Source of the DNA: a virus
Virus record (IMG/VR): IMGVR_UViG_3300021197_000790
Coordinates: 1 to 24,392 of that record
Reading direction: 5' to 3' (one strand)
DNA: 24,392 nucleotides
Of this stretch, positions 6,113 to 13,890 are shown piece by piece. The notes under the pieces were generated by a model. It was not told where the DNA came from. It was given only the letters and a program-made list of their open reading frames with translations, and searched no databases. A program made the position numbers and the translations under genes. Each line of letters starts with the position of its first letter. Position 1 is the first letter of the stretch.

Positions 6113-6245
6113 TCCTTGGGTCCTGCTGTTGGGTGATCCACTCTTTAATTCGCTTTTCCTGTTCTTTAATTGTTTCTGCTTGGTCTTTTATAGTTTTCTT
6201 TTGAAACTTTAATTTATCAGTTTGATGTTGTTGTTTTTGACTCAT
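6105..6245 (-). CDS. 46-residue coiled-coil microprotein
   Basis: A small gene filling the gap between the nucleosidase-like gene and the gp62-like gene. GGAGG lies seven bases before the ATG, the ATG shares bases with the preceding stop (TAATG), and its own stop overlaps the next start. Nearly the whole protein is a charged helix (TIKDQAETIKEQEKRIKEW) with hydrophobic residues at heptad spacing: Leu12, Ile19, Ile26 and Ile33, and Trp36. This is a plausible dimeric coiled coil. The function is unknown; it could be a partner of the adjacent gp62-like protein. The signals for translation are the main reason to accept it. Confidence 0.72.
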   Translation of the reverse strand: MSQKQQHQTDKLKFQKKTIKDQAETIKEQEKRIKEWITQQQDPRNG

Positions 6246-6796
6246 TAAAAACCTCCTACAATCTGTTGAAATATTTTTATGTAATGTTCTTCGCCATCTG
6301 CTACAGTTTTTGCCCAGTCATCATTTGCATTTTCATCTGCACTATCGCTAATATACTTAAAACATCTAAAGTTTACATCTGCTTGTTTACATGCTTTTGC
6401 TATTGCATAGGCTTCCATATCTACAACGTCTGATATAACTTCTTCTTTTGTAAAGTCGCTTACAAAATTATCTCCTGTACTACAACACATATCTTCTATA
6501 TCACCATTTAATAAAACAACACCTTTCTCAAAAGGTGTTTGCCCTGTAGCAAAACCTAGTTCACAACACTTCATATCACGTTGTACAAAGTTTTTAATTT
6601 CATGTATTCCAGATGTTACACTAACACCGCCTGCTGTACCAAAATTGAATACAGTTTCTGGTTTATATCGTTCTATTAGTTTACCAGCAGTAATACCTGC
6701 ATTGACTTTACCAACACCTGTAAAAAATACATTATCCCAATCTGCCATCTTAGGTGCTTCTTGTTCTAAAGCAATCAATATAATATTACGCATCAT
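6245..6796 (-). CDS. MTA/SAH nucleosidase-like protein (nucleoside phosphorylase fold)
   Basis: A 183-residue member of the PNP/UDP phosphorylase superfamily, closest in motifs to 5'-methylthioadenosine/S-adenosylhomocysteine nucleosidase (about 230 residues in E. coli). ALEQEAP gives Glu11 at the position of catalytic Glu12. GVGKVNAGITAGKLIERYKP then NFGTAGG (51-57) matches the IGKVAAA...NTGSAGG region. STGDNFV matches VSGDAFI. VVDMEAYAIAKAC (124-136) contains the ribose-binding Met-Glu. ISDSAD gives Asp151 at the position of catalytic Asp197. It is some 50 residues shorter, missing a surface stretch in the middle. It would release adenine from MTA or SAH. Its start lies inside the end of apt (11-base overlap), linking it to adenine salvage. 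Confidence 0.82.
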   Translation of the reverse strand: MMRNIILIALEQEAPKMADWDNVFFTGVGKVNAGITAGKLIERYKPETVFNFGTAGGVSVTSGIHEIKNFVQRDMKCCELGFATGQTPFEKGVVLLNGDIEDMCCSTGDNFVSDFTKEEVISDVVDMEAYAIAKACKQADVNFRCFKYISDSADENANDDWAKTVADGEEHYIKIFQQIVGGF

Positions 6797-7316
6797 ATTC
6801 TACCACACTATAACTATCTATTCCACAATACTCCTTTAGTTTAGCAGTTCCTTGTAGGAAAGTCAAGTCAATTACACAGGCATATTTCATATCCATTACT
6901 TTAAACTCCTGTAAGAGCTCAAATATAGCACTTGCAGTTCCACCCGTAGCACTTACATCATCTATGATACAAACGTTGCTGTCTGGCCCTAATTTTGCGT
7001 CCTGCTTTATGTTTAAGTTTGTTTCTGCGTACTCATATGTAAAGTGATGTGTATGCAAAGGCCCTGGAAGTTTGCCTGGCTTCCGAACTATGTGTAAAGG
7101 TATTTCCATATCTAATGCCACTGGAGCACCCCATAAAAATCCTCTGGCATCTGGTGCCACAATATCTGTAATTTTATTACGCATACAAAAGTCTGTTAGT
7201 TTAGTAACAGTATACTGAAATGCTTTTGGATTTTCTAAAATACTTGTAACGTCTTTGTATTGTATTCCTTTAACAGGAAAGTCAGGTACAGTTTTTATTA
7301 CTTTTTTAAGATCCAT
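6786..7316 (-). CDS. apt: Adenine phosphoribosyltransferase
   Basis: A 176-residue APRT, the usual length (about 180). It joins adenine with PRPP to make AMP. TVPDFPVKGIQYKDVTSIL is the N-terminal adenine-recognition block of the family, VRKPGKLPG is the conserved basic loop, and IIDDVSATGGTA (about 117-128) is the PRPP-binding motif with its acidic pair. The ATG at 7316 is preferred to an upstream TTG. It overlaps the stop of the 248-residue gene by 11 bases and the nucleosidase-like gene by 11 bases. With that enzyme it makes a two-step route from MTA or SAH to AMP. Confidence 0.93.
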   Translation of the reverse strand: MDLKKVIKTVPDFPVKGIQYKDVTSILENPKAFQYTVTKLTDFCMRNKITDIVAPDARGFLWGAPVALDMEIPLHIVRKPGKLPGPLHTHHFTYEYAETNLNIKQDAKLGPDSNVCIIDDVSATGGTASAIFELLQEFKVMDMKYACVIDLTFLQGTAKLKEYCGIDSYSVVEYDA

Positions 7317-8052
7317 TCTCAAGTTCCCATTCTAAGTTTTCAGCATGTTCTTCCCAATACTCAGATAAGTCGCCATCTTCAGGATCAATATATTCATCTC
7401 TCCATTTGTCTGTAATCCAACCAACTGCGGCTTCGTAACTTTTGCCCGTTGTATCATTGTAGTCATAGTCTGCTTCTAATAGATTTTTATCGTACCAAAG
7501 GTCTTCTACAAAATCGCCTAAATGTGTTTCTACAATACTGAATACTAATTTATTAGGATCAAAAGGTTCGTCAGATTCTACAAACCAAGTTGCAAATCCA
7601 CCTTTTTCTGAACTATGAAATAACATCACAGGAGTACATCCTTCTGAATCAGCATTTATGTCTGTGCTAATATATGCACCTTCTCTGCCTTTTAGTGTAT
7701 GTCCTTCAACTTCCATTTCATTTTCATCATATGCATATTTGTCATCTTCATTAGTTATATCACTTACAAAGAATCCGCCATCTGCATAAGCGGCATTGAT
7801 ATGTTCTATATCATCTACTCCATACCAACCTTCTATTTCATTAGTGTCTTCAAAAATATCAGGAGAGTCGGAATCAAGATCCTCGTCATCGTCCCATTCA
7901 CTTAGTGCAAGTACATGTGGTATGAAAGTTTCATATGTACCTTCCTCTTCGATTATAGGTGCCCAATATTTAACGAACTCTTCTGATACTGAGCCAACTG
8001 CAAGTTCGCCGCCATATCTTCCGCCTTCAATTCTATACTTAAATTTTGCCAT
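7306..8052 (-). CDS. Uncharacterised acidic 248-residue protein
   Basis: Not recognised. Strongly acidic throughout, with runs such as EWDDDEDLDSDSPDIFEDTN (about 92-111) and many Trp and Tyr. MAKFKYRIEGGRYGGELAVG at the start looks like a beta-hairpin. The composition recalls DNA-mimic proteins, but acidic proteins are common in these phages and this is not evidence of function. GGAG lies seven bases before the ATG. It is co-transcribed between an unknown gene downstream of uvsW and apt. Confidence 0.75.
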   Translation of the reverse strand: MAKFKYRIEGGRYGGELAVGSVSEEFVKYWAPIIEEEGTYETFIPHVLALSEWDDDEDLDSDSPDIFEDTNEIEGWYGVDDIEHINAAYADGGFFVSDITNEDDKYAYDENEMEVEGHTLKGREGAYISTDINADSEGCTPVMLFHSSEKGGFATWFVESDEPFDPNKLVFSIVETHLGDFVEDLWYDKNLLEADYDYNDTTGKSYEAAVGWITDKWRDEYIDPEDGDLSEYWEEHAENLEWELENGS

Positions 8053-10029: not shown

Positions 10030-10059
10030 ATTATACTACCATTTCCTTTGTATTGTCAA
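10030..10059 (-). promoter_or_regulatory. Sigma70-type promoter of uvsW
   Basis: Minus strand: TTGACA at 10059-10054, 18-base spacer, TATAAT at 10035-10030. The predicted transcription start is about 10023, inside the ATG at 10024-10022. The -35 box lies in the last codons of the TonB receptor gene, so the promoter is embedded in the end of that gene. Confidence 0.8.
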
Positions 10060-11736
10060 CTTAATTTCTCTACCTTGAGTACCATACCCTGGTAAAACCT
10101 CTGTGTCTTCGTCTAACACGTTATTAACATTAAGTGCTAATTGTACATTAGAATCAAATGTTTTAACATATCCCAAGTTTAATTTTTGCAAATCCTCTAA
10201 TTCGTCGCCATCATAATCTCCAGGCTTTCTATCATATGCACCTGTGTAAGTAGCATTTATATTATGAGAACCAAAGTCTTGATTGTAACTTAATACTGCA
10301 ACATACTTAGGCACTCTAGCCTGCTCTGTATCTGTTGCTTTTAGCATTACGCCAAATGCTCCAAATGTTTGCGAGTATCTAAACCCTTTAGTTTGGTATG
10401 CACCTGTATTAAGATATTTTGCATTGTTATAAACAGTTGTAGTTGTTGATGTAGCATTTCCTTCTTCGTCAATATCTATTGTTACAACATCTTCAGAATA
10501 TCCTGGTTGGTATTCTATTGCTTGTTCAAAGTCATACATAAAAATACTTAATACACCAAATCCTAATTCATACCCAACTGCTTCTTCTGGTAGTAAATCT
10601 AAGTTAGCATCAACCCAACCATCTCCATTTAATTCGTATAAGTTTGGTCTTCTATAACTTGTACCAGCATTAAAAAAGAATTGATTCTTTTCAATACCAA
10701 ATCTCATAGCATTCTGGTCTTCATTGCCAACTCTAAAACCAAAGTTATAATTTAAGGCAAACTCGGCATTAATATTTAAGTAAGCACCATAATTATCTCT
10801 TGTATGCTTTTCATTGTTTAAACTTTCATACTGTTCCTGGCTTCCGTCTACACCATATGCAATTTGCAGTTTTTGAGATAGATTAGTTTGGTCTCCTATT
10901 CTTACATAGTCTGTACTACTCTCATTAGAGTAAGACATCCAATCACCGGAATAATATTCTGATTGCTGATGAGTTCTACCTATAGTAAAGTACTCATTGT
11001 TAATAGCAACATTATACTTCTCACCGTCTTGTACACAATTATTCGTTGATGCAAAACTAGAATCATAACAATTATCATAGTCATATTCAAAGTCTGTAAA
11101 CTTTGCTGTAATAGTAAAGTCCTGAACATCTACATTAAGTTTAACATTTTTATTTGAATATGCATCAACTTCTGTGTTGTCATTTCTTGCTTGATTATCT
11201 ACACCTAATTCTGTGTACTGTATCCAGTTTGTTGGTGCTAAGTTTAGGTACCTATGGCTATTACTTCCTGCACCCAATGTAAATCCTTTTGTAATAGTAT
11301 CTTTAATTAATACAGTTCCAGCAATACTGCTTGATCCGTATACAACACTATTAGGACCTGAGATAACTTTTATATCTTCTCCAGTTACAACATCTACTCC
11401 AAAGTTATACCATGCTGAGCCAGGCTCGTTTGCTGGTATACCATTTCTAAAGACTGTGGTGTGTATTGTTTGAGCACCACGTTCATTGTAACCTTGGAAG
11501 GCACCGTATCCACCTGCTGTCCAAGTGTATGATGGTAATACTTTTGTAATTAAATGTGTTTCTGTTAGTGGGTCTGTTTCTGTCGTTGTTACTTGTTGTG
11601 CCACTACTACAACTTCCTCTATTTCTTCTGCTTCTGCATTAAATGATATTGCCATTAATACCATAACTACAAACACAAAATATAAAGGACTAAAATTGAT
11701 ATGGAAATTCCAGTCAATTTTGTTCTTGCTTTTCAT
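10036..11736 (-). CDS. TonB-dependent outer-membrane receptor, BtuB-like
   Basis: A 566-residue receptor, short for the family (600-900; BtuB about 614). A long basic n-region (1-16) precedes a hydrophobic core (about 17-32), with a cleavage-site-like NAEA before EE at 36/37. EEVVVVAQ (40-47) looks like a TonB box, which contacts TonB for energy coupling. The plug domain follows: YNERGAQTIHTTVFRNGIPA, then GPNSVVYGSSSIAGTVLI (the conserved GPxSVLYGxxAxGGxI block). The barrel carries SYRRPNLYELNG, and the C-terminus NVLDEDTEVLPGYGTQGREI resembles BtuB [20 protein letters not shown], ending in an aromatic Trp as outer-membrane proteins do. Cargo might be cobalamin or a siderophore-like chelate. 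It has its own strong promoter and GGAG Shine-Dalgarno. No frameshift is visible. Confidence 0.92.
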   Translation of the reverse strand: MKSKNKIDWNFHINFSPLYFVFVVMVLMAISFNAEAEEIEEVVVVAQQVTTTETDPLTETHLITKVLPSYTWTAGGYGAFQGYNERGAQTIHTTVFRNGIPANEPGSAWYNFGVDVVTGEDIKVISGPNSVVYGSSSIAGTVLIKDTITKGFTLGAGSNSHRYLNLAPTNWIQYTELGVDNQARNDNTEVDAYSNKNVKLNVDVQDFTITAKFTDFEYDYDNCYDSSFASTNNCVQDGEKYNVAINNEYFTIGRTHQQSEYYSGDWMSYSNESSTDYVRIGDQTNLSQKLQIAYGVDGSQEQYESLNNEKHTRDNYGAYLNINAEFALNYNFGFRVGNEDQNAMRFGIEKNQFFFNAGTSYRRPNLYELNGDGWVDANLDLLPEEAVGYELGFGVLSIFMYDFEQAIEYQPGYSEDVVTIDIDEEGNATSTTTTVYNNAKYLNTGAYQTKGFRYSQTFGAFGVMLKATDTEQARVPKYVAVLSYNQDFGSHNINATYTGAYDRKPGDYDGDELEDLQKLNLGYVKTFDSNVQLALNVNNVLDEDTEVLPGYGTQGREIKLTIQRKW

Positions 11737-11788: not shown

Positions 11789-11816
11789 ATTATACGTCTT
11801 TACTGCCAAAAGTCAA
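11789..11816 (-). promoter_or_regulatory. Sigma70-type promoter of the TonB receptor gene
   Basis: Minus strand: TTGACT at 11816-11811, 16-base spacer, TATAAT at 11794-11789, with a second TATAAT directly after it. The predicted start near 11782 gives a 46-base leader. It lies just downstream of the intrinsic terminator, so the receptor has an independent transcription unit. Confidence 0.87.
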
Positions 11817-11839: not shown

Positions 11840-11871
11840 AAAAGGTGAAGCCCGGAGGATATCCGGGCTTC
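11840..11871 (-). terminator. Intrinsic terminator after the AAA+ ATPase gene
   Basis: A perfect 10-bp stem, GAAGCCCGGA / TCCGGGCTTC, with a five-base loop, followed on the minus strand by ACC and TTTTATATATTT. On the plus strand no T-run follows, so it acts in the minus direction. The GC-rich stem stands out strongly from the AT-rich surroundings. Confidence 0.82.
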
Positions 11872-11872
11872 G

Positions 11873-11921
11873 TGGTGCTCTAGTGGGGGATGACTAACGT
11901 TGAGCACCAGGGAACCGTTAG
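11873..11921 (-). ncRNA. Candidate H-type pseudoknot RNA element between AAA+ gene and terminator
   Basis: Two interleaved inverted repeats are seen on the minus strand: CTAACG (11921-11916) with CGTTAG (11899-11894), and TGGTGCTC (11909-11902) with GAGCACCA (11880-11873). The order stem1-5', stem2-5', stem1-3', stem2-3' is that of an H-type pseudoknot with stems of 6 and 8 bp, loops of about 6, 2 and 13 bases, and the terminator hairpin directly after it. It could be the 3' UTR of the ATPase mRNA, a stable small RNA released from it, or a regulatory element for read-through into the receptor gene. It matches no riboswitch I can recall. Confidence 0.55.
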
Positions 11922-11936
11922 CAATATATAATTATC

Positions 11937-12983
11937 TTATATCGCTCCTGACATACAAGTAGTTTTGGCTAAACTTTTCCAGTTCTCAGAATCCATTTTT
12001 CTAAGGTCTGCAATCTTAAGAACCATTCTCAAACTAATCTCCCTTAGTATGTTTTGGTTCTCAGTCATAAAGTCAATAACTTCTTTGTCGCCATCTTTAC
12101 CAAACTTGTATTCTTCAAGCATACCGTCTTCAACGATTTGGTTAATTCTAAGAAACTTATCTCTCTTAGAGTTCATTGTAAGATCCAAGTAGTGACATCT
12201 TGACATAAGTGCCGCCAAGTGATCCTTAATCTTCTTAGAACGAACGTTTTCAAAATCAACGTTAGTAATAAAGATACAACCACCTTTGAATTCAAACCTA
12301 TCAGGAATACCTTCTCTACGAAGTGCTTGTGATTCTGACTTCCAAGTAATAGTTCGTTTCTTACCTGAGTCCAAAGTAGCCTTAAGCATGTTCAAACATA
12401 CTTCATCAAACAACACACTATCACAGTCATCAAATACAAGTATGTTACCTGCCGCTGAATTATTATATAGTGTTTGGAACAAACCAATTGGAGTAACTGA
12501 ACCTTTAACAACTTCAGTCCTTGCAGGCTTACCAGCAACTTCTGTTAGCATGTCATAATCTTCTAAAACAGTTTCAACACCAAATGACTTACCAACTCCT
12601 GGAGGGCCACTTACTATCATACCACGTACTGTACCTTCTGCTACAGCATGAGTCATACGATCCAAAATATCAAAACGTTCTCTGATACGTTCAATTGCTT
12701 GAACATCAGTTTCTTCCTTTTCTTCTTTTGGAGTATTGTCTATTTTAGGCTGTTCAGCATAAACACTTGGAGTAACATACTCTAAGTCTTTTGTAGGATC
12801 TTCAATTAAAATCCTAATGCTTGAAAATTTCTCACCCATCGCTTCACTACCATCAACGGTAATAAAAGCACCTTTTTTGCCAATGTTAAGTGGCTTAATG
12901 ATTGGAAATACTGTATCAACGATTTCGTTTTTACGGTAAGTACCAGTCTTAACCTTTACATAATTTAAAGTTTGTTTTGTCAT
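11937..12983 (-). CDS. AAA+ family ATPase of unknown role
   Basis: A 348-residue ATPase. Residues 1-80 form a non-ATPase N-terminal domain, followed by an acidic linker (PKEEKEETD) and the AAA+ core: GPPGVGKS (126-133, Walker A), ILVFDDCD (181-188, Walker B), FITN (238-241, sensor 1) and a likely arginine finger in the SRCH region. It is not the clamp-loader gp44: the N-terminal domain and motif context differ. Similar ATPases occur in marine T4-like phages without known function. It has its own sigma70-type promoter, a structured leader of about 55 bases and a terminator, so it is a single-gene unit. The ribosome-binding site would be GGGGA about eight bases before the ATG. Confidence 0.85.
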   Translation of the reverse strand: MTKQTLNYVKVKTGTYRKNEIVDTVFPIIKPLNIGKKGAFITVDGSEAMGEKFSSIRILIEDPTKDLEYVTPSVYAEQPKIDNTPKEEKEETDVQAIERIRERFDILDRMTHAVAEGTVRGMIVSGPPGVGKSFGVETVLEDYDMLTEVAGKPARTEVVKGSVTPIGLFQTLYNNSAAGNILVFDDCDSVLFDEVCLNMLKATLDSGKKRTITWKSESQALRREGIPDRFEFKGGCIFITNVDFENVRSKKIKDHLAALMSRCHYLDLTMNSKRDKFLRINQIVEDGMLEEYKFGKDGDKEVIDFMTENQNILREISLRMVLKIADLRKMDSENWKSLAKTTCMSGAI

Positions 12984-12986
12984 AAT

Positions 12987-12995
12987 GTCATCCCC
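12987..12995 (-). promoter_or_regulatory. Ribosome-binding region of the AAA+ gene, complementary to the downstream RNA element
   Basis: GGGGATGAC on the minus strand sits three bases before the ATG and holds the only purine-rich Shine-Dalgarno candidate. It is perfectly complementary over nine bases to GTCATCCCC in the long loop of the pseudoknot candidate after the same gene (11894-11886). Confidence 0.45.
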
Positions 12996-13045
12996 GACGT
13001 TTATGTTGTTGTTTAAGGAACCCTTTTCCCTAACTCTTATATACT

Positions 13046-13073
13046 ATTATACTTCTTTTTGAGTGGAAGTCAA
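13046..13073 (-). promoter_or_regulatory. Sigma70-type promoter of the AAA+ gene
   Basis: Minus strand: TTGACT at 13073-13068, 16-base spacer, TATAAT at 13051-13046, preceded by AAAAAGG. The predicted start near 13039 gives a leader of about 55 bases, which includes a small stem TTAGGGAA / TTCCTTAA (with one G-U pair). Confidence 0.85.
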
Positions 13074-13861: not shown

Positions 13862-13890
13862 ATTATACGGATATTTGGTATGAATGTCAA
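13862..13890 (-). promoter_or_regulatory. Consensus sigma70-type promoter of the 56-residue gene and dexA
   Basis: Minus strand: TTGACA at 13890-13885, 17-base spacer, TATAAT at 13867-13862. Both boxes and the spacing are exactly consensus, the strongest promoter in the window. The leader is about 22 bases and carries AGGAG. Confidence 0.9.

What the first reader, a model, noticed from the sequence alone, without database searches (positions are those of the whole stretch)
11840..11921. Pseudoknot candidate joined to a strong terminator between the ATPase and receptor genes
Two perfect inverted repeats (6 and 8 bp) are interleaved in H-type pseudoknot order, followed directly by a 10-bp GC-rich terminator hairpin. 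The whole element is about 80 bases in otherwise AT-rich sequence and resembles no known riboswitch in my memory. It could be a ligand-sensing element controlling read-through into the receptor gene, a nuclease-resistant 3' end, or a small RNA.
Basis: seen in the sequence. Interest (0 to 1): 0.62.

Follow-up and report, generated by a model that had tools for sequence, protein, structure and literature searches.

The report
Phage mRNA tail pairing own start
The tail of this phage gene's mRNA folds into a conserved structure whose exposed C-rich stretch matches the ribosome-binding or start-codon region of the very same gene across a large group of uncultured phages, so the gene probably limits its own translation.

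Summary
On the minus strand, 11921-11847, two perfect interleaved helices (6 and 8 bp, H-type order) run into a 10-bp terminator hairpin. The element is conserved in 32 distinct close relatives. It belongs to the upstream AAA-ATPase gene, not to the receptor: in 14 relatives that lack the receptor it is still there, and in the window the receptor has its own promoter. No Rfam family matches. A ligand switch controlling read-through is not supported. What the element does show is complementarity of its most conserved stretch (CGUUAGUCAUCCCC) to the initiation region of its own gene (GGGGAUGAC before the start codon). In distant relatives both sides have changed together: a 3' hairpin loop CUCCCAC and an SD-bearing hairpin loop GUGGGAG. 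91% of 106 loci have at least 8 contiguous complementary bases, against 5% of other genes. Swapping partners between clades abolishes the match. The own start site is the strongest target (once tied) in 9 of 10 contigs. Best reading: 3'UTR-to-own-RBS pairing that represses translation, in cis or as a 3'UTR-derived RNA, working like S. aureus icaR or V. cholerae OppZ. The pairing is well supported by comparison; repression is inferred. No RNA data exist here.

The parts
13046..13073 (-). sigma70-like promoter of the ATPase gene (TTGACT-16-TATAAT)
   Evidence: a similar promoter lies upstream of the gene in 105 of 106 relatives
13013..13033 (-). 5'UTR hairpin with AAGGG loop (ttagggaa-AAGGG-ttccttaa), role unknown
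   Evidence: sequence; different stems around the same loop in 16 of 32 clade-A relatives
12987..12998 (-). Ribosome-binding region GTC-GGGGAT-GAC; GGGGATGAC (12995-12987) is the pairing target, start codon at 12983
11937..12983 (-). AAA-type ATPase gene, 348 aa, homologous to T4-group nrdC.10 proteins (PHROG 1250, function unknown)
11916..11921 (-). 5' arm of pseudoknot helix S1 (CTAACG)
11910..11915 (-). conserved C-run GTTCCC in loop 1, partner unknown
11902..11909 (-). 5' arm of helix S2 (TGGTGCTC)
11894..11899 (-). 3' arm of helix S1 (CGTTAG); also part of the invariant block
11886..11899 (-). Invariant seed block CGTTAGTCATCCCC; GTCATCCCC (11894-11886) is complementary to the gene's own RBS
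   Evidence: block conserved; complementarity and controls
11873..11880 (-). 3' arm of helix S2 (GAGCACCA)
11847..11871 (-). 10-bp terminator hairpin followed by ACCTTTT
   Evidence: covaries in relatives
11789..11816 (-). Separate sigma70-like promoter of the downstream TonB-dependent receptor gene

Best explanation
The element is the structured 3'UTR and terminator of a monocistronic ATPase mRNA. Its exposed seed base-pairs with the initiation region (Shine-Dalgarno or start codon) of the same gene. The pairing is either long-range within one mRNA or from a released 3'UTR fragment acting on other copies of it. Most likely it blocks ribosome binding, so translation falls once full-length transcripts accumulate: negative autoregulation. 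Shown by sequence comparison: the 3' helices, the 5' hairpin in distant relatives, the seed left unpaired in predicted folds, the self-complementarity and its maintenance across clades. Inferred: that the duplex forms in cells, that it represses, and whether it acts in cis or in trans.
For: (1) The invariant block of the 3' element, CGUUAGUCAUCCCC, contains GUCAUCCCC, the exact complement of GGGGAUGAC at the window gene's own RBS. (2) In 74 more distant loci the 3' seed is CUCCCAC and the SD is GUGGGAG (72 exact cores): both sides differ from the window and are still complementary. (3) Longest complementary run of own RBS with own 3'UTR is >=8 in 96 of 106 loci, against 22 of 430 other genes in the same loci; partners swapped between clades fall from 9.6 and 8.2 to 6.0. 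(4) With the seed as query, the own RBS is the best target in 9 of 10 contigs (32-288 genes each in those; one tie). (5) In contigs of 61, 51, 38 and 37 kb TGTGGGAG occurs once, at this RBS, and its complement once, in this 3'UTR. (6) In clade A, where the SD does not pair, pairing moves to the start codon (AUGACUAAC) and the Thr codon is ACU in 12 of 12; where the SD pairs it is ACA in 17 of 17. (7) In distant relatives the SD lies in the loop of a covarying hairpin and the seed in the loop of a covarying 3' hairpin, with the seed predicted unpaired. (8) Promoter upstream and terminator downstream bracket the gene. (9) icaR gives an experimental precedent for a UCCCC motif in a 3'UTR blocking its own SD (PMC3868564).
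Against: No transcript or protein data. Loci are related, so the counts are not independent events. In a single genome, with the seed not fixed in advance, the match is only modestly unusual. Within the 74 distant loci the 7-base core is nearly invariant on both sides, so covariation of the pairing rests on the clade A versus B/C switch, the register shift and the codon switch; flanking bases follow only partly. The L050/L051 type keeps only 5-7 perfect pairs, and in its 340-kb contig other start sites score better. Cultured relatives of the gene show no clear self-pairing. In the start-codon type the seed overlaps helix S1, so pseudoknot and RBS pairing would compete.
Confidence: 0.72

Rival explanations
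1. The element is mainly a source of a trans-acting phage small RNA with several targets (other phage or host mRNAs); pairing with its own mRNA is one target among many.
For: C-rich exposed seeds next to a strong terminator resemble SD-targeting sRNAs. In clade A the seed is invariant although the gene's own RBS changes between types. In the L051-type contig another gene's start region scores better than its own.
Against: In 9 of 10 contigs the own RBS is the top target, usually by a clear margin. TGTGGGAG is nearly absent elsewhere in several contigs. The other gene hit in the L051-type contig is not conserved as a target in its ortholog.
Confidence: 0.13
2. It is simply a stable 3' end: a transcription terminator plus a protective structure against 3' exonucleases, with no regulatory pairing.
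For: Terminator hairpin conserved and covarying; very stable fold; structures next to terminators can stall nucleases (general knowledge).
Against: It does not explain why the loop stretch is the most conserved part, nor its matched complementarity to the own RBS in two clades and the synonymous codon switch.
Confidence: 0.08
3. A ligand-sensing pseudoknot controls read-through into the TonB-dependent receptor gene.
For: H-type pseudoknot followed by a terminator; the receptor follows in 80 of 96 loci, and in about a third no promoter-like site lies between.
Against: The element persists where UvsW, not the receptor, follows (14 of 96 loci). The receptor has its own promoter in the window. No Rfam riboswitch match. 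Distant relatives keep a C-rich loop and terminator but no conserved pocket. No antiterminator alternative was seen.
Confidence: 0.03
4. The two matching segments are DNA inverted repeats at the ends of a mobile cassette carrying the ATPase gene, not RNA elements.
For: They are inverted repeats about 1.1 kb apart flanking one gene.
Against: The upstream copy always sits on the RBS or start codon; each copy lies in its own covarying hairpin in B/C; the repeat sequence differs between clades and shifts register onto the start codon.
Confidence: 0.02

Closest known systems
icaR mRNA 5'UTR-3'UTR pairing, Staphylococcus aureus (PMC3868564)
   Same: A C-rich anti-SD motif (UCCCCUG) in the 3'UTR pairs with the SD of the same mRNA (UAGGGGG).
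   Different: Here it is a phage gene; the seed sits in a pseudoknot or hairpin loop joined to the terminator; in distant relatives the SD sits in a hairpin loop, so the contact would be loop-loop; and the pair of sequences changes together between clades. Repression and RNase III cleavage were shown for icaR, not here.
OppZ and CarZ autoregulatory 3'UTR-derived sRNAs, Vibrio cholerae (PMC7398697, PMC9438474)
   Same: RNA from the 3' end of an mRNA is predicted to target a ribosome-binding region of its own transcript.
   Different: OppZ is cut by RNase E, uses Hfq and targets an internal cistron; here the target is the first and only cistron, and no processing is known.
hok mRNA fold-back inhibition (fbi/tac), from general knowledge
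   Same: The 3' end of an mRNA pairs with its 5' end and keeps it untranslated.
   Different: hok needs 3' processing to become active and encodes a toxin with an antisense RNA; nothing of that is seen here.
S. aureus RNAIII / RsaE type UCCC loops (mentioned in PMC3868564)
   Same: C-rich exposed loops complementary to SD sequences.
   Different: Those act in trans on many mRNAs; here the best target is the gene's own RBS.

Membership tests
icaR-type 3'UTR-to-own-SD pairing | C-rich motif in the 3'UTR complementary to the SD region of the same mRNA | tested here: met
icaR-type 3'UTR-to-own-SD pairing | Pairing is specific to the own RBS | tested here: met
   Own RBS is the best target in 9 of 10 contigs, one tie among them, one exception
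icaR-type 3'UTR-to-own-SD pairing | Pairing represses translation and creates an RNase III substrate | not testable with these tools
   Needs experiments
3'UTR-derived autoregulatory sRNA (OppZ/CarZ type) | Stable RNA released from the mRNA 3' end by RNase E and bound by Hfq | not testable with these tools
   No RNA data for these uncultured phages
H-type pseudoknot | Two interleaved helices conserved in relatives | tested here: met
   Clade A only: S2 covaries, S1 has one compensated pair. Distant clades keep the hairpin but not clearly S1
Known riboswitch or other Rfam family | Match to a curated covariance model | tested here: not met
   No gathering-level hit in the window, only tRNAs in relatives; best weak match ES205, 21 bits against 86 required
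Read-through riboswitch | Sits upstream of and controls the receptor gene | tested here: not met
   Element stays with the ATPase gene where the receptor is missing; separate receptor promoter in the window
Intrinsic terminator | GC-rich hairpin followed by a T-run | tested here: met
   the T-run is short (ACCTTTT)

The most novel reading that the evidence does not exclude
A widespread group of large phages uses a self-addressed RNA contact: a 3' pseudoknot or hairpin loop kisses the SD-bearing 5' hairpin or the start codon of the same mRNA, with a pairing code that has been rewritten in step on both sides during evolution. In the window's clade the pseudoknot helix mimics the target (CUAAC) and acts as a lid that opens to bind it. 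This would be a new RNA family for feedback control of a phage gene.
Probability: 0.4. Interest if true: 0.75.

Novelty: new variant of a known kind. Interest (0 to 1): 0.63.

Why it matters
Pairing of a bacterial mRNA's 3'UTR with its own start site is known from a few single genes studied one at a time. Here comparison of about a hundred phage loci shows such pairing held for one gene while both partner sequences change. That gives a natural mutate-and-compensate experiment and a ready test bed for 3'UTR feedback. It would also give a first functional handle on a widespread T4-group ATPase of unknown role, which these phages apparently need to keep in check.

Tried and rejected
Riboswitch or read-through switch: rejected on synteny, promoter and Rfam. 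Generic anti-SD sponge: disfavoured because the own RBS is the top target. Mobile-element terminal repeats: disfavoured by position on the RBS and covarying hairpins. blastn of the intergenic region against cultured phages gave only short chance-level matches. Cultured relatives: four T4-type or Vibrio phages have runs of 6 (background); PA5oct has an 8-base match that also lies in its terminator stem, left open. A scan for relatives of the PA5oct protein found none. The other high-scoring target in the 340-kb contig was checked and is not conserved. A possible pairing of the GTTCCC block with the 5'UTR GGGAA was looked at by eye and not supported. With an unanchored run-length test in single genomes the signal is modest, so the claim rests on comparison between lineages.

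Full report
What is there. The element reads on the minus strand directly after the stop codon of a 348-aa AAA-type ATPase gene (11937-12983): CTAACG - GTTCCC - TGGTGCTC - AA - CGTTAG - TCATCCCCCACTA - GAGCACCA - C - GAAGCCCGGA/TATCC/TCCGGGCTTC - ACCTTTT. The stretch is far more stable than shuffles (z -6.7). No Rfam family reaches threshold in the window; the best sub-threshold match is ES205 with 21 of 86 required bits.

Setting. The window is a virus record of 24,392 bases in a collection of uncultured viral contigs. Its genes include T4-type UvsX, gp32 and UvsW relatives (inferred from the Pfam matches) and a large terminase 58% identical to that of the jumbo Pseudomonas phage PA5oct. The ATPase belongs to PHROG 1250, function unknown, and is a distant relative of nrdC.10 of T4-group phages. 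It is bracketed by its own sigma70-like promoter (13073-13046) and the terminator; the next gene, a TonB-dependent receptor, has another promoter (11816-11789). In 96 relatives with a readable downstream gene, the receptor follows in 80 and UvsW follows directly in 14 of the B/C loci, and the element is present in both. So the element belongs to the ATPase gene.

Conservation of the structure. Three searches with ATPase proteins gave loci that reduce to 106 distinct cases: 32 of the window type (clade A) and 74 more distant (B/C). 'Clade' here means a group by seed type and protein similarity; no tree was built. In clade A the 8-bp stem and terminator covary; helix S1 has one compensated pair, one wobble variant and three cases with a mismatch. 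The most conserved stretch is unpaired or S1-paired: CGTTAGTCATCCCC is invariant or nearly so while flanking loops vary in length. In clade B the stem around CCTCCCAC pairs in 100% of cells, with both-sided changes in four of eight pairs. In clade C other hairpins carry CTCCCAC in the loop.

The key relation. GTCATCCCC in the element is the exact complement of GGGGATGAC, which starts 12 bases before the ATPase start codon. In B/C the SD is GTGGGAG and the loop is CTCCCAC. The SD there sits in the loop of a small hairpin with stems such as gccu/gggc, aauguu/gacauu, uuuuugu/gcaaaaa and uguuu/gaaca around an invariant GUGGGA; this covaries beyond every shuffle on three measures. The contact in those phages would therefore be loop-loop.

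Tests. (a) Longest complementary run between own RBS and own 3'UTR is at least 8 in 96 of 106 loci but in 22 of 430 other genes of the same loci. (b) Swapping partners between clade A and B/C lowers the mean run from 9.6 and 8.2 to 6.0 both ways. (c) With the conserved seed as query, the ATPase's own RBS is the most stable target in 9 of 10 contigs of 24-250 kb holding 32-288 predicted genes, one of them a tie; the exception is the 340-kb contig of the L051 type. (d) In contigs of 61, 51, 38 and 37 kb TGTGGGAG occurs once, at this RBS, and its complement once, in this 3'UTR; an 83-kb contig has one extra copy. (e) Within clade A some members have another SD (GGGAG); in them pairing moves to the start codon (GATGACTAAC) and the Thr codon there is ACT in 12 of 12, against ACA in 17 of 17 members whose SD pairs and 14 of 16 Thr codons in B/C. 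This synonymous choice is what pairing predicts. (f) The seed is predicted unpaired in the isolated 3' RNA of B/C and largely so in clade A.

Limits. Loci share ancestry, so counts overstate independence. Within B/C the 7-base core hardly varies, and bases next to it follow only partly. In one genome alone, with no seed fixed beforehand, the match would not be striking. The L050/L051 type has only 5-7 perfect pairs. Cultured relatives do not show it clearly. The conserved GTTCCC block in clades A and B and an AAGGG-loop hairpin in half of the clade-A 5'UTRs are unexplained.

Mechanism. Pairing covers the SD or start codon, so the simplest effect is to block initiation. The mRNA can be translated until its 3' end is made, after which the seed closes the start site of the same or another copy. 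Repression by such pairing has been shown for icaR (PMC3868564), and autoregulation by a released 3' RNA for OppZ (PMC7398697; PMC9438474). In clade A the S1 arm CTAAC has the same sequence as the target in AUGACUAAC, so the pseudoknot may be a lid that competes with the target; this is inference. Whether it acts in cis or trans is open.

Verdict. The best description is a new phage RNA element that works like icaR-type 3'UTR-to-own-RBS pairing. It is not claimed as a proven member, because repression was not testable here.

Noticed in passing
window 13013-13033 (-): A 5'UTR hairpin with loop AAGGG and different stems in relatives (16 of 32 clade-A loci) lies upstream of the SD; loop partner unknown.
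   Followed up: partly
window 11910-11915 (-); clade B loci such as L208 near 4070: A C-run GTTCCC/GTTCCCCC just before the seed hairpin is conserved in clades A and B with no identified partner.
   Followed up: partly
window 10036-11736 (-): A TonB-dependent receptor (Plug domain match) encoded in a phage genome between the ATPase and UvsW genes; missing from this place in 14 of 96 relatives. A marine megaphage also has a putative TonB-dependent receptor (PMC9723777).
   Followed up: partly
L223 2192-3390 (PA5oct): The PA5oct relative's RBS (GGAGTAGCAT) is complementary over 8 bases to the 3' arm of the hairpin after its stop codon; could be chance or a third version of the same scheme.
   Followed up: partly
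window 13862-13890 and 10030-10059 (-): Two perfect 12-of-12 sigma70 consensus promoters (TTGACA, TATAAT; spacers 17 and 18).
   Followed up: no
window 6245-7322 (-): Adjacent phosphoribosyltransferase-domain and nucleoside-phosphorylase-family genes, a possible purine salvage pair.
   Followed up: no
L022 3' of the ATPase gene: An extra hairpin (TGGTCTACTTGTAGACCA) is inserted between the S2 helix and the terminator.
   Followed up: no
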